A stretch of 63,971 nucleotides of DNA from an uncultured Bacilli bacterium (lineage in GTDB: Bacteria; Bacillota_I; Bacilli_A; RF39; UBA660), in contig CANRCC010000006.1 of NCBI GenBank assembly GCA_947629025.1, positions 1 through 63,971 on the forward strand. Direction: 5' to 3'. Made by a program: the position numbers and the translations under genes. This document shows positions 23,244 through 43,665 of the stretch, piece after piece (the first letter of the stretch is position 1; each line of letters begins with the position of its first letter). A model generated the notes under the pieces. The model did not search any database, had not been told where the DNA came from, and saw only the letters and a list, made by a program, of their open reading frames with translations.

Positions 23244-24413
23244 ATGAAAGTGAATAAATTAATGGAAAAAAGTGACATGACAATATCTATAATAAACCCA
23301 CTTGTAAAACAAATAAAACCACAAAATAAAATTAAAAACAAAATCTATATTACATATAATATATGTGAAACTTGCAATTTGAATTGTCTGTTTTGTTGTA
23401 TAAATGATAATTATCATAGTAAAAAGCATATTTCAATAGAAAATTCAGATATTATCTTAAATAAAATTAAAAAAAATTATGACATTGACACAATTTTTAT
23501 TATGGCGAATGAACCAACTACTCAACCGGAATTGTCTAACCATATAATAAAATATGCAATAAATAATAATATAAAGATTAAACTTGTTTCAAATGGATTT
23601 GCACCTATTAGTATTTACGAAAAAATTTTAAAGGATATTAATCCTAAAGATATTTATAAAATAACAATCAGCCTAGATAGTATGAATGAAAAAATTCATA
23701 ATACAATGAGAAACAATAATATGGCATTTTCGAACGCAATGAAAACAATTGAATTTTTAAATAGCAATCATTATAATATTAGAATTCAAATGACTATTTG
23801 TGATATTAATTATGATACTATTATAGATTCAGTAAAAGATCTTAATAGCAAATATGGTATTAATAATTTTGCATTTCATTGTATGTCGATTTCAGAAAGA
23901 ACTATAAAAAATGGCTTGCATCATTTAAATGCCTTTAAATGGCGACATCTTGTTTCAGAATTATTTGCTTTAAAATCAAAATTAAATAACATAAAAGAAT
24001 TTAGTGTACCAATTATTGCTATGACAAAAAATGAATTATTAAAATTATATTTTGGAAACAATGAAAAAATGCTAAAACAATTTATGAAAAGAAAGTCATT
24101 AAAATTATGTCCTGCTATTAATGGTAACAATATATATTTAAAGGCTAACGATGATGACGTTTTTATATCAAGATGTCAAATATTATTTGATAACATTGGT
24201 AAGTATTCTTTTAAATATGATTATAAAAAAAATAATTTTAAAGAAAATAAAAAGAATAATGATTTTAATGTAATAAAGAAAAGTAAAACACTATGTCCAG
24301 TTATATTGACTGAATTAAATTTAAAAAAAGATTATGAAGAGGATGAAAATGGTAATAAATTATATTATGTTTGCAGGGTATTATTAGCAAACGAAAATGA
24401 TTTAGATTACTAA
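23244..24413 (+). CDS. radical SAM protein with SPASM-like C-terminal cysteines
   Basis: CNLNCLFC motif, SNGFAPIS and ISLDSMNEKIHNTMR rSAM features; further Cys in KLCPAI...SRCQIL...TLCPVIL...YVCRVL. Confidence 0.82.
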   Translation: MKVNKLMEKSDMTISIINPLVKQIKPQNKIKNKIYITYNICETCNLNCLFCCINDNYHSKKHISIENSDIILNKIKKNYDIDTIFIMANEPTTQPELSNHIIKYAINNNIKIKLVSNGFAPISIYEKILKDINPKDIYKITISLDSMNEKIHNTMRNNNMAFSNAMKTIEFLNSNHYNIRIQMTICDINYDTIIDSVKDLNSKYGINNFAFHCMSISERTIKNGLHHLNAFKWRHLVSELFALKSKLNNIKEFSVPIIAMTKNELLKLYFGNNEKMLKQFMKRKSLKLCPAINGNNIYLKANDDDVFISRCQILFDNIGKYSFKYDYKKNNFKENKKNNDFNVIKKSKTLCPVILTELNLKKDYEEDENGNKLYYVCRVLLANENDLDY

Positions 24414-25670: not shown

Positions 25671-25854
25671 CTAAAAAGATTTGGTTCAAAAGTATTGATA
25701 AAAAAATTATAATCCATAATCGTGGTCATTTAAATAAAGAAACTGATATAGTTCTTTTTCTGAAAATTTAAAAGAGATTTAAAAAAATTTCCTGTATCTT
25801 TCTTTAGGAAACTAATGATATTTTTTTCTACTATTCAAACTTAATATAGAGAAC

Positions 25855-25883
25855 TTGCAAAAGAGTCGTTTTTATGTTATTAT
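25855..25883 (+). promoter_or_regulatory. promoter of putative antisense RNA antitoxin
   Basis: TTGCAA (25855-25860), 17-nt spacer, TATTAT (25878-25883). Confidence 0.6.
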
Positions 25884-25889
25884 GAATAT

Positions 25890-26000
25890 GTCAAGGAAAC
25901 TTGAATAAAATAAAAAAGGAATACCTAATTTTGTCGAGTTAGGTACTATCCTAAAATTATTTGAGATTAGTACCGACTTATACAGTTGGTACTATTTTTA
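25890..26000 (+). ncRNA. putative antisense RNA antitoxin (~110 nt)
   Basis: From predicted TSS to terminator AGTACCGAC(7 nt)GTTGGTACT-ATTTTTA; antisense to the 3' end of the minus-strand peptide mRNA. Confidence 0.5.
25906..25945 (-). terminator. terminator of putative type I toxin mRNA
   Basis: Minus strand TACCTAA-N10-TTAGGTA followed by TTCCTTTTTTATTTTATT. Confidence 0.55.
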
Positions 26001-26070
26001 TTAGTATGATTAAAATCACAATAATAAGGAGTATTATGATAGTACAAAGATATTTCTCTTGCTTTCTCAT
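25978..26070 (-). CDS. putative type I toxin: 30-aa hydrophobic peptide MRKQEKYLCTIIILLIIVILIILIKIVPTV
   Basis: Minus-strand ATG 26070-26068, stop TAA 25980-25978; strong SD AAAGGAGGTGAAATT before ATG; basic N-terminus plus one TM stretch; too short for the ORF track. Confidence 0.65.
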   Translation of the reverse strand: MRKQEKYLCTIIILLIIVILIILIKIVPTV

Positions 26071-26140
26071 AATTTCACCTCCTTTCACTTTAAAAAGTAA
26101 AGGAGAATAGTACCTAAATTAATTAAGTATTCCTAAAATA

Positions 26141-26169
26141 ATTATATCAAACAAATGTTCATTATACAA
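26141..26169 (-). promoter_or_regulatory. promoter of putative toxin mRNA
   Basis: Minus strand TTGTAT-17 nt-TATAAT. Confidence 0.6.
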
Positions 26170-26211
26170 TATTTTTATATTAAATTTATTACAATTTAGA
26201 GAAATACTTGT

Positions 26212-26228
26212 ATATTGCTCAGCAATAT
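26212..26228. promoter_or_regulatory. operator-like perfect palindrome ATATTGCT-C-AGCAATAT
   Basis: 8-1-8 palindrome in the second copy of the segment found at 23126-23171. Confidence 0.45.
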
Positions 26229-26501
26229 ATCTTATAGGATAATAAAATTAAAAAATATTATAAAAAAGTCAAATAATATATAAATATAAGGTGAGAACTA
26301 AATAAGAGATTTGTTTATAAAATATAATTTAAAAATTATATTTAAAGTTATTATATTTATTTCTTTAGTGAATTAGATTTATATCAAATTTTTACTTTTA
26401 TAATTTTAGTTTTAAAATTTCAAAATTTATGATAGAATACTATATAGTTTAATTAATTTTATATTATAAAAATAATATTTTGATAAGGAGTTGTTAAATT
26501 T

Positions 26502-29222: not shown

Positions 29223-31259
29223 ATGAGCCATAAATATATAAAACAAGATGGTTTAAAAGATTGTGGTGTATGTTGTCTATATAATATTATAAAATATTAT
29301 GGTGGAAGTATAGATATCGATAAACTAAGAATATATACTAAAACCGATGATAATGGAACTAATGTATATAATATTATTTTGGCATCTAATAAACTCGGGC
29401 TAAATGCAGAAGCATATAAGTGTGAATTAGACGATTTATGTTCACTTAAATTACCTATTATTGCTCATATGGTAATAGATAATTGTAATCATTTTATTAT
29501 TATAGACAAGATAGTAGATGATAATATTATTATATTTGATCCTATAAGAGGAATTTTAAAGTATTCAATGAAAGATTTTGTTAAAGAATGGACAAATATA
29601 ATTATTACATTTACTCCTACTTGTAATATAGTAAAAGAAAAAGAAATAAAGCATACATTTAATATTTATAAATTTATAAAAGATAATAAGATAATACTTA
29701 TATATTTTCTTCTTTCGTCTTTTATCATAACACTCCTAACCAGTCTTAATTCACTATTTCTTAGTGAATTATATAAAAAAAGTACCTATTCGTCTAAAAT
29801 TTTTTCATACTTTGTTATGCTTATATTAGTCAAAATTACATTAGATTACATAAGAACTATGAAATTAGTAATATTTAATAAAAAAATAGACAACACAATA
29901 ACAACAAAAACTTTGAAAAAAATATTATTCCTTCCGTATAAATATCATCATGATAGACCAGTTGGAGATATAATATCAAGATTAAATGATCTTACTTCAA
30001 TTAAAGATTTTATATTTAAAGTTATTTTTTCATTTATAATTGATTGTTTCTTTTTATTAATTTTCATGGTATTAGTATTAAAAATTAATTATATCATATT
30101 TTACATGTTAGTATGTATTTCACTTACTTATCTCCTATTTCATATTATTTATAGAAAATCCATATTATCTAATACTATGATTTTAAAAGAAGCACAAGCA
30201 AATGTAAATTCATTATTGTTTGAGAGCGTAGTAGGAATTGATACAATTAAAAATTTATCAATTGAAAATAAAATTTATAAAAGATTTAAAAAAGAATACA
30301 ATGATTTTCAGATAATAAATTCAAAATTAAATACAAAATATGCAAAACTAAATTTAATAAAAAATATGATAGAATCTTTAAGTCCAATAATATTAATTTA
30401 TATAGGTATATGTTTATCTGAAAGAGAAATTATCCCATTTTCCAATTTGATTGCTCTTAATTCAATAATAATATATTATTTTATATCTTTAGAAAATGTT
30501 ATTTCAATTGATATGACATTAATAAATGCAAAAGAATCATATAAAAGATTAAGTAGATTATTAAAAAATAAAGAAGAAAAAGATAAAGAAAAATTAGATA
30601 TAAGATTTAGTCACAAAATAGATTTTAGCAATGTAATATTTTCATATAATGATGTTAATAATATAATTGAGAATGTAAATTTCAGTATTATTAAAAATAC
30701 ATCTGTATTTATTAAAGGAAAAAGTGGAACAGGCAAATCAACATTATTTAAATTATTAAATAAGCAATTAGATGTAAAAGATAATATGATATTTATTGAT
30801 GGAATTGATATAAATAAAATTAGTAGAGAAGATATTAAAAATAATATTTGTTATGTATCACAAAATGAGTTTATATTTACAGGTAGTATACTTGATAATA
30901 TTAAAATGTATAGTAATTTATCAAATGAAGAAATAACAAAAGCAGTTAAGGTTTCAAAACTAGATGAAGTATTAGAAAAAAGAAATATTAATTTAGATTA
31001 TATATTAAAAGAGAATGGATGTAATTTATCAGGAGGAGAAAGACAGAAAATTTTAATTGCAAGATCTCTTTTAAGAAATAAAAATATCTTGATATTTGAT
31101 GAAACAATGAATGAAATTGATTCTAAATGTGAAAAAGAAATAATAGAAAATATAAAAAAACATTATTGTATAACATTAATTTTAATTTCACATAAAGAAG
31201 ATAATTCTAATCTATTTGATGAAATAATAGAATTTAATAAGAAAGGAAGCAGTATATGA
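29223..31259 (+). CDS. bacteriocin-processing ABC transporter (C39 peptidase + TMD + NBD)
   Basis: QDGLKDCGVCCLYNIIKYYGG (C39 Cys), CNHFIIID (His), FDPIRG (Asp); KSGTGKST, LSGGERQ, ILIFDE NBD motifs. Confidence 0.92.
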   Translation: MSHKYIKQDGLKDCGVCCLYNIIKYYGGSIDIDKLRIYTKTDDNGTNVYNIILASNKLGLNAEAYKCELDDLCSLKLPIIAHMVIDNCNHFIIIDKIVDDNIIIFDPIRGILKYSMKDFVKEWTNIIITFTPTCNIVKEKEIKHTFNIYKFIKDNKIILIYFLLSSFIITLLTSLNSLFLSELYKKSTYSSKIFSYFVMLILVKITLDYIRTMKLVIFNKKIDNTITTKTLKKILFLPYKYHHDRPVGDIISRLNDLTSIKDFIFKVIFSFIIDCFFLLIFMVLVLKINYIIFYMLVCISLTYLLFHIIYRKSILSNTMILKEAQANVNSLLFESVVGIDTIKNLSIENKIYKRFKKEYNDFQIINSKLNTKYAKLNLIKNMIESLSPIILIYIGICLSEREIIPFSNLIALNSIIIYYFISLENVISIDMTLINAKESYKRLSRLLKNKEEKDKEKLDIRFSHKIDFSNVIFSYNDVNNIIENVNFSIIKNTSVFIKGKSGTGKSTLFKLLNKQLDVKDNMIFIDGIDINKISREDIKNNICYVSQNEFIFTGSILDNIKMYSNLSNEEITKAVKVSKLDEVLEKRNINLDYILKENGCNLSGGERQKILIARSLLRNKNILIFDETMNEIDSKCEKEIIENIKKHYCITLILISHKEDNSNLFDEIIEFNKKGSSI

Positions 31260-42981: not shown

Positions 42982-43446
42982 ATGAAAACATTTAGTAGAA
43001 CACTTCATGGCTATAATCCAGATGAGGTTAATAAATTTCTTGATGAAATAATATCGCAAGTAGAAAAGATAATTGAATCAAATAAACAAAAAACTAAAGA
43101 GATAGAAAAATTGCAAGAAGAATTATCTAAAATAAAACCAGATGAAGATTCAATCAGAAAAGCAAAGAAATTTGATGAATTATCATCAACTTTGAATAAG
43201 GCAATCGTTATGGCAGAAGAAACAGGTGAGCATATAAGAAGAGTTGCCCGTGAGGAACGCGATTTAATGCTGGAAGAAGCTAAAAAGAATGCAAGTATTA
43301 TTGTTTCTGATGCGCTTAGAAGATCTGAAAAGATTGAATATGAAAGTGCACTACTAAAAAAGAATATAGAAATTTTTAAAAGAAAATTAAGAGCCAATTT
43401 AGAAGAACAACTTAAAATGGTAGATGATATTGAAAATATAAAATAG
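42982..43446 (+). CDS. divIVA: DivIVA-domain protein
   Basis: FSRTLHGYNPDEVNKFLDEII; coiled coil. Confidence 0.88.
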   Translation: MKTFSRTLHGYNPDEVNKFLDEIISQVEKIIESNKQKTKEIEKLQEELSKIKPDEDSIRKAKKFDELSSTLNKAIVMAEETGEHIRRVAREERDLMLEEAKKNASIIVSDALRRSEKIEYESALLKKNIEIFKRKLRANLEEQLKMVDDIENIK

Positions 43447-43449
43447 AAG

Positions 43450-43665
43450 ATAGAGACGGATATTTATTAAAATATTTACAGAGAATTGTCATTATGCTGA
43501 GAGACATAATATTTATAAATATTAGATCACTCTTGATATTTTTAACTGAAAGTAATTAGGTTAAAACGTATAATATGCGTTAAATATATAAAGTGCATAG
43601 AAATATCTATGAAGTAAGGTGGTACCGCGATTAATCGTCCTTACATCATAGATATTTTTATTTTG
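43450..43665 (+). promoter_or_regulatory. T-box leader, Ile type
   Basis: GTAAGGTGGTACCGCGATTAATCGTCCTTAC; possible specifier ATC in AGATCAC. Confidence 0.88.

What the first reader, a model, noticed from the sequence alone, without database searches (positions are those of the whole stretch)
25917..26134. hok-like 5'-3' complementarity and SD-sequestering hairpin in the putative toxin mRNA
In the predicted minus-strand mRNA, the 5' end AGGAAUACUUAAUU (26134-26121) pairs with the 3' end AAUUAGGUAUUCCU (25930-25917) over 14 bp with one G-U. A second pair UUAGGUACUAU/AUAGUACCUAA (26117-26107 with 25949-25939) is 11 bp and perfect. The 3' arms of these pairings also form the terminator hairpin, giving mutually exclusive folds. 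The 5'UTR also has CTCCTTTACTTT against AAAGTGAAAGGAG (26105-26094 with 26091-26079), which would bury the SD. Closed 5'-3' folds and SD occlusion are hallmarks of type I toxin mRNAs such as hok and bsrG.
Basis: seen in the sequence. Interest (0 to 1): 0.72.

Follow-up and report, generated by a model that had tools for sequence, protein, structure and literature searches.

The report
Multi-copy RNA-controlled toxin cassette in gut Bacilli
This is one copy of an apparently undescribed family of tiny 'poison peptide plus antisense RNA' cassettes that is scattered, in several sequence-unrelated versions, through the small genomes of one family of uncultured gut bacteria; the poison's messenger RNA is predicted to be folded shut end to end, and when a cassette decays the poison half is lost while the antidote half stays.

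Summary
The locus is best explained as a chromosomal type I toxin-antitoxin cassette. The minus strand carries an extended -10 promoter, a ~220-nt mRNA closed by 14 + 11 bp of 5'-3' pairing, a Shine-Dalgarno hairpin and a 30-aa hydrophobic ORF. The own genome has 8 copies of the antitoxin module: 3 complete cassettes with different peptides and arms, and 5 that lost the toxin 5' part. 225 of 386 family genomes have hits. Long-distance pairing is kept in 128 of 129 ORF-bearing copies, across sequence-unrelated types; the ORF is under purifying selection; all 94 internal toxin 5' halves have an antitoxin unit downstream, whereas 10 antitoxin units lack the toxin 5' half. The repeated unit ends at the promoters, not at the inverted repeats, so it is not a MITE. 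No Rfam, Pfam, phage, plasmid or viral match. 'Hok-like' holds for mRNA closure only. Toxicity and transcription are untested.

The parts
26141..26169 (-). Toxin promoter: TTGTAT (26169-26164), 17-nt spacer, extended -10 TGATATAAT (TATAAT 26146-26141)
   Evidence: Sequence; -10 and TTG conserved in 86 aligned copies; shared similarity between copies starts here or up to ~75 nt upstream.
25911..26134 (-). Predicted toxin mRNA, ~220 nt
   Evidence: TSS 7 nt after the -10; T-run after the terminator; fold z -7.2. Transcription not shown.
26121..26134 (-). 5' arm of outer long-distance helix, pairs with 25930-25917
25917..25930 (-). 3' arm of outer long-distance helix; also descending arm of the mRNA terminator hairpin
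26107..26117 (-). 5' arm of inner long-distance helix, pairs with 25949-25939
25939..25949 (-). 3' arm of inner long-distance helix; also ascending arm of the mRNA terminator hairpin
26079..26105 (-). SD-sequestering hairpin; SD GGAGG at 26082-26078
   Evidence: MFE; conserved in the type A alignment; SD unpaired probability 0.07.
26033..26073 (-). Start-codon occluding helix: AUUAUGA 26073-26067 with UCAUAAU 26039-26033 inside the ORF
   Evidence: Consensus fold of 42 type-A homologues; an equivalent helix in type B.
25978..26070 (-). Toxin ORF MRKQEKYLCTIIILLIIVILIILIKIVPTV (30 aa, one hydrophobic, presumably membrane-spanning segment)
   Evidence: SD + ORF in homologues; pN/pS 0.56 over the ORF, 0.38 in the hydrophobic segment; no Pfam/NCBIfam family.
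25855..25883 (+). Antitoxin promoter TTGCAA-N17-TATTAT with TG extended -10
   Evidence: in 207 copies spacing 17 in 192 and TG in 198, with varied TTGnnA hexamers.
25890..26000 (+). Predicted antitoxin RNA (~110 nt), antisense to the 3'UTR and last codons of the toxin mRNA
   Evidence: Promoter + terminator; own fold z -5.4; ~95 nt overlap with the mRNA. Transcription not shown.
25891..25904 (+). Constant 5' stem-loop of the antitoxin, UCAAG-GAAA-CUUGA
   Evidence: Shared by unrelated toxins in the same genome; compensatory variants GCAAG/CUUGC, AUGAAG/CUUCAU, AUGGAG/CUCCAU.
25968..25994 (+). Antitoxin intrinsic terminator hairpin (11 bp) followed by TTTTTATT; overlaps toxin codons IVPTV and stop
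   Evidence: Only terminator-like site found in 25700-26500, expected 0.0; synonymous changes suppressed here (pS 0.02 vs 0.15); compensatory pairs in types C/D/E.

Best explanation
A chromosomal type I toxin-antitoxin cassette. The minus-strand mRNA encodes a 30-aa membrane peptide. During transcription a local 5' hairpin and the SD hairpin form; once the 3' end is made, its two arms pair with the 5' end (25 bp), giving a compact, ribosome-inaccessible and probably exonuclease-resistant mRNA. The convergent plus-strand ~110-nt RNA, from its own extended -10 promoter, is complementary to the mRNA 3' end including both 3' arms; pairing most likely leads to RNase III-type decay of the toxin mRNA and keeps the peptide off. 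If the cassette is lost or antitoxin transcription stops, the long-lived mRNA outlasts the antitoxin, is opened or processed, and the peptide damages the membrane. Shown here by computation: sequence, structures and their conservation, the conserved promoter/terminator pair, ORF selection, asymmetric decay. Inferred: transcription, toxicity, RNase III decay, the activation step.
For: 5'-3' closure far above chance and kept in 128/129 ORF-bearing copies; arms unrelated between paralogues yet complementary (own -31/-32/-36 kcal/mol against -9 to -29 swapped within this genome; own medians -33 to -40, shuffled -13, between-type swaps -21). Hydrophobic short ORFs with SD in 129 of 209 module copies plus at least 19 with a weaker SD, in at least six sequence types. 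pN/pS 0.38 (hydrophobic segment, type A), 0.50 (B), 0.20 (C), 0.31 (D). Conserved convergent promoter and terminator. Antitoxin 5' stem-loop kept by compensatory change. Decay asymmetry: 94 of 94 internal toxin 5' halves have an antitoxin unit downstream, while 10 cassettes keep the antitoxin without the toxin 5' half (Fisher p 2e-5 for 0/94 vs 16/101 halves); own genome 3 intact, 5 toxin-truncated.
Against: No transcript, toxicity or antitoxin data. In type A the SD hairpin stays closed in trimmed and nascent forms, so how the toxin is ever translated is not explained. No prophage, plasmid or viral linkage was found, so what is stabilised is unknown. The genomes are draft MAGs.
Confidence: 0.86

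Rival explanations
1. A MITE or other non-autonomous transposable repeat whose terminal inverted repeats explain the 5'-3' complementarity.
For: Dispersed, multi-copy, in tandem in some genomes, sporadic between relatives.
Against: The repeated unit extends about 45-75 bp beyond the right arm, to the antitoxin -35, and has ragged left ends at or upstream of the toxin -10, so the repeats are internal. ORF under selection; arms differ entirely between types while ORF class, SD and promoters are kept. By inspection, copies with both arms but no ORF are only a few frameshifted ones.
Confidence: 0.06
2. The peptide ORF is a leader or regulatory peptide, or the RNA a cis-regulatory element, of a neighbouring gene rather than a toxin.
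For: Small ORF, structured RNA, intergenic location.
Against: The unit has its own terminator on each strand and sits in different surroundings in different genomes and in tandem; no shared downstream gene was seen.
Confidence: 0.03
3. A small membrane peptide with antisense RNA control that is not toxic at native level, for example a stress regulator derived from a toxin-antitoxin cassette.
For: Several intact copies per genome; very tight SD and AUG occlusion.
Against: Asymmetric loss of the toxin half with retention of the antitoxin half is what toxicity predicts; sporadic distribution.
Confidence: 0.05

Closest known systems
bsrG/SR4, bsrE/SR5, txpA/RatA (Bacillus subtilis)
   Same: Small hydrophobic peptide; antitoxin convergent and overlapping the mRNA 3' end; RBS held in a short helix; toxin mRNA cleaved by RNase III in the duplex (PMC6562991; PMC8309996).
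   Different: No homology detected in Pfam/NCBIfam or Rfam; a 25-bp 5'-3' closure; antitoxin terminator lies in the last toxin codons; chromosomal multi-copy, no phage link found here.
aapA/IsoA (Helicobacter pylori)
   Same: ~30-aa peptide, several chromosomal copies, mRNA inactivated by a 5'-3' long-distance interaction conserved across loci (PMC6733600).
   Different: IsoA binds only the 3'-truncated mRNA; here the antisense covers the 3' end itself, including both 3' arms. In type A, 3' trimming alone does not open the SD in folding. Different phylum and peptide.
CD2517.1-RCd8 and related Clostridioides difficile type I systems
   Same: Convergent overlapping antitoxin, many copies per genome, small hydrophobic toxins (PMC6563280).
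   Different: C. difficile toxins are 34-59 aa with charged C-termini and mostly prophage-borne; here mostly 22-33 aa, no charged tail in types A and D, no phage link found.
hok/Sok
   Same: 5'-3' closure of the full-length mRNA.
   Different: No Hok homology, no mok leader, antisense at the 3' end rather than the leader.

Membership tests
Type I toxin-antitoxin (general) | Small (<60 aa) hydrophobic membrane peptide with RBS | tested here: met
   30 aa, SD GGAGG, hydrophobic core; short hydrophobic ORFs in homologues; purifying selection.
Type I toxin-antitoxin (general) | Antisense RNA gene overlapping the toxin mRNA | tested here: inconclusive
   Predicted strongly: convergent promoter conserved in 207 copies, terminator, compensatory 5' stem-loop. 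Not shown as a transcript.
Type I toxin-antitoxin (general) | Toxicity on overexpression, relieved by the RNA | not testable with these tools
   Needs the bench; asymmetric decay is indirect support.
hok/Sok | Hok protein family | tested here: not met
   No Pfam/NCBIfam match.
hok/Sok | Antisense RNA to a translated leader (mok) | tested here: not met
   Antisense lies at the 3' end; 64-nt 5'UTR without a coupled leader ORF.
hok/Sok | 5'-3' closed full-length mRNA | tested here: met
   (prediction and conservation).
aapA/IsoA | 5'-3' long-distance interaction conserved at several loci | tested here: met
aapA/IsoA | 3' trimming opens the SD | tested here: not met
   Type A SD unpaired 0.07 to 0.04 on removing 50 nt; partly met in types C and D (0.15-0.16 to 0.40).
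bsrG/txpA-type (3'-overlapping convergent) | Antitoxin convergent, overlapping the mRNA 3' end | tested here: met
   (predicted RNAs).
bsrG/txpA-type (3'-overlapping convergent) | Sequence homology to BsrG/BsrE/TxpA/YonT | tested here: inconclusive
   No family hit, but peptides this short score poorly and no direct comparison was made.
MITE | Inverted repeats at the ends of the mobile unit | tested here: not met
   Similarity runs about 45-75 bp beyond the right repeat.
Rfam RNA families | Covariance-model match | tested here: not met
   None at E <= 1 in 25800-26300.

The most novel reading that the evidence does not exclude
A lineage-wide, modular type I toxin-antitoxin system in which one constant antitoxin cassette (promoter, 5' stem-loop, A-rich linker) is combined with several sequence-unrelated toxin mRNAs, each keeping its own private 5'-3' lock and antitoxin specificity, so that copies within a genome do not cross-neutralise; the cassette spreads and diversifies within one family of reduced-genome gut Bacilli without a detectable phage or plasmid carrier.
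Probability: 0.4. Interest if true: 0.72.

Novelty: new member of a known kind. Interest (0 to 1): 0.6.

Why it matters
It adds a large, apparently undescribed type I toxin-antitoxin family in uncultured, genome-reduced gut Bacilli, where tiny ORFs and antisense RNAs are usually not annotated. The many natural copies, in several unrelated sequence types with the same architecture, are a ready-made evolutionary data set: they show the 5'-3' mRNA lock persisting through complete sequence turnover, together with a 3'-end antitoxin, and they show toxin-first decay directly. They also provide a test set for how paralogous antisense pairs avoid cross-talk.

Tried and rejected
MITE hypothesis: rejected on unit boundaries and ORF selection. 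Rfam at gathering and at E <= 1: nothing at the locus. Pfam/NCBIfam for seven peptide types: only chance hits well under cut-offs. Viral contigs, phages, plasmids: no match. Direct protein search of genome contigs: query too short. Same-genus synteny for an empty site at this locus: the neighbouring PepC-like gene was found by DNA in only one other genus member, partial, so no empty-site test. A first regular expression for the antitoxin stem-loop failed and was redone (it also returns some unrelated hairpins inside ORFs). The first automatic ORF filter missed weak SDs (GGGGG, GGTGG), corrected by inspection. L308 first looked like a toxin without antitoxin but carries an alternative antitoxin leader. 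Literature search found no description of this family; the library holds open-licence papers only, so absence there is weak evidence.

Full report
Observation. The 229-nt minus-strand RNA 26134-25906 folds at -65.2 kcal/mol against -36.7 +/- 4.0 for shuffles (z -7.2), and the minimum-energy structure contains the outer 14-bp and inner 11-bp 5'-3' helices and the SD hairpin.

What was missed: the antitoxin. On the plus strand, immediately beyond the mRNA 3' end, lies TTGCAA-N17-TATTAT with an extended -10 (25855-25883), and 85 nt further the only terminator-like site of the 800-bp region, TAGTACCGACTTATACAGTTGGTACTA-TTTTTATT (25968-25994; 0.0 expected). It would give a ~110-nt RNA with its own structure (z -5.4), antisense to ~95 nt of the toxin mRNA including both 3' arms, the 3'UTR and the last codons. 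In 207 related copies the promoter keeps a 17-nt spacer in 192 and the TG in 198, with different TTGnnA hexamers, and the antitoxin's 5' stem-loop is maintained by compensatory changes (UCAAG/CUUGA, GCAAG/CUUGC, AUGAAG/CUUCAU, AUGGAG/CUCCAU). Ten of the 94 internal toxin 5' halves are followed by such variant leaders rather than by the main one; L305 is interrupted by an insertion but keeps its module.

Copies. DNA searches show the unit, or a part of it, in 225 of 386 genomes of the same family (106 of 150 genera), often several per genome and sometimes in tandem. The named records are uncultured Bacilli MAGs, many from animal guts by their isolate names (provenance read from record titles). 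Outside the family one of 31 hit genomes in a class-wide sample had a short match. No match in IMG/VR, phage or plasmid collections.

Own genome. The antitoxin module occurs 8 times. Three loci are complete (window; C7:47059; C26:9054) and encode three different peptides, MRKQEKYLCTIIILLIIVILIILIKIVPTV, MNKKDFLILSLIILIFLLVLLLFIVLI and MKKRTFIVKVLRLVAIILLLLTLLVIAIKI. Their mRNAs share little sequence (window against either other: only short matches, E about 0.07; C7 against C26: 70% over 77 nt, E 0.002), yet all have the same plan: 5'-3' closure, SD hairpin or near-SD helix, hairpin at the stop codon. The arms pair with themselves (-31, -32, -36 kcal/mol) better than with each other (-9 to -29). 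Five further copies have lost the promoter/5' part of the toxin gene but keep the antitoxin promoter.

Family. Of 209 module copies with at least 330 nt of upstream sequence, 129 have an SD followed by a short hydrophobic ORF whose stop lies 41-109 nt before the module; at least 19 more have a weaker SD, and a further group is an MTKRE...LLLK type with AAAGGTGG as SD. 128 of the 129 keep the long-distance duplex. Median own duplex energies are -33 to -40 by type, against -13 for shuffled 3' ends and -21 for between-type swaps. Within type A, 99.0% of 1,092 pair cells are kept, 25-47% when slid; 11 cells are compensatory double changes against 4.9 in shuffles. Type A varies little, and the tool's shuffles do not keep relatedness, so most of the weight comes from the between-type comparison. 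Types C/D/E show compensatory changes in 9 of 24 consensus pairs, mostly in the stop-codon hairpin that is the antitoxin terminator.

Selection. pN/pS is 0.56 for the type A ORF, 0.38 in the hydrophobic segment, 0.50, 0.20 and 0.31 in types B, C and D; in codons 26-30, which overlap the antitoxin terminator, synonymous change is almost absent (pS 0.02 against 0.15 overall). Because RNA structure also suppresses synonymous changes, these ratios are conservative.

Decay asymmetry. Symmetric searches with 121-bp 5' and 3' halves and inspection of fetched loci give 94 internal toxin 5' halves, every one with an antitoxin unit downstream, whereas about 16 of 101 internal 3' halves have lost the toxin 5' half, 10 of them with the antitoxin promoter still there and about 6 as bare relics (Fisher p 2e-5). 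The loci were partly hand-picked from the hit lists and only two candidates per genome were scored in those searches, so the p-value is indicative.

Not a MITE. Similarity between copies begins at or up to ~75 nt upstream of the toxin -10 and ends mostly 45-75 bp beyond the right inverted-repeat arm, near the antitoxin -35: the repeats are internal to the unit. How copies move is unknown.

Mechanism. By architecture this is a type I toxin-antitoxin cassette: closed, presumably stable mRNA and convergent 3'-end antisense. The 3'-overlap topology and local RBS helix match bsrG/txpA of B. subtilis (PMC6562991) and the convergent C. difficile systems (PMC6563280); the 5'-3' closure matches aapA/IsoA (PMC6733600) and hok. 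A weak point is activation: in type A the SD remains paired in full-length, trimmed and nascent models (0.07, 0.04, 0.04), and the AUG is also paired with the ORF; types C and D open partly on trimming (0.15-0.16 to 0.40). So 'hok-like activation by 3' processing' should not be claimed for the window's copy.

Verdict. Observation confirmed; interpretation right in kind, only partly right in the specific analogue, and incomplete. A new family of a known kind, notable for scale, modularity and for combining a 5'-3' lock with a 3'-end antitoxin. Transcription and toxicity remain to be shown.

Noticed in passing
L305 (G208:C89) 60-760: A type A toxin ORF interrupted by a ~290-bp insertion rich in inverted repeats; the antitoxin half is intact downstream.
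   Followed up: partly
L124, L127, L129, L304, L308, L317, L121, L125, L130, L312: Variant antitoxin cassettes with a different 5' stem-loop (e.g. GAUGAAG-GAAA-CUUCAU after TATAATGTATATA), combined with type A toxins.
   Followed up: partly
L136, L177, L199, L056, L118, L127: Tandem or neighbouring cassettes, both of the same type and of different types side by side.
   Followed up: partly
G555:C32:11731-11777: One antitoxin-module match (98% over 47 nt) in a genome of another family of the class: transfer or misbinned contig.
   Followed up: no
window 23244-24413 and 29223-31259: A radical SAM protein and, ~5 kb away, a C39-peptidase ABC exporter: possibly parts of a peptide-modification/export cluster.
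   Followed up: no
window 43438-43645 (+): T-box leader (Rfam RF00230, 96.8 bits).
   Followed up: no
window 26155-26217: A part of the copies share a further ~60 bp AT-rich stretch upstream of the toxin promoter; role unknown.
   Followed up: no
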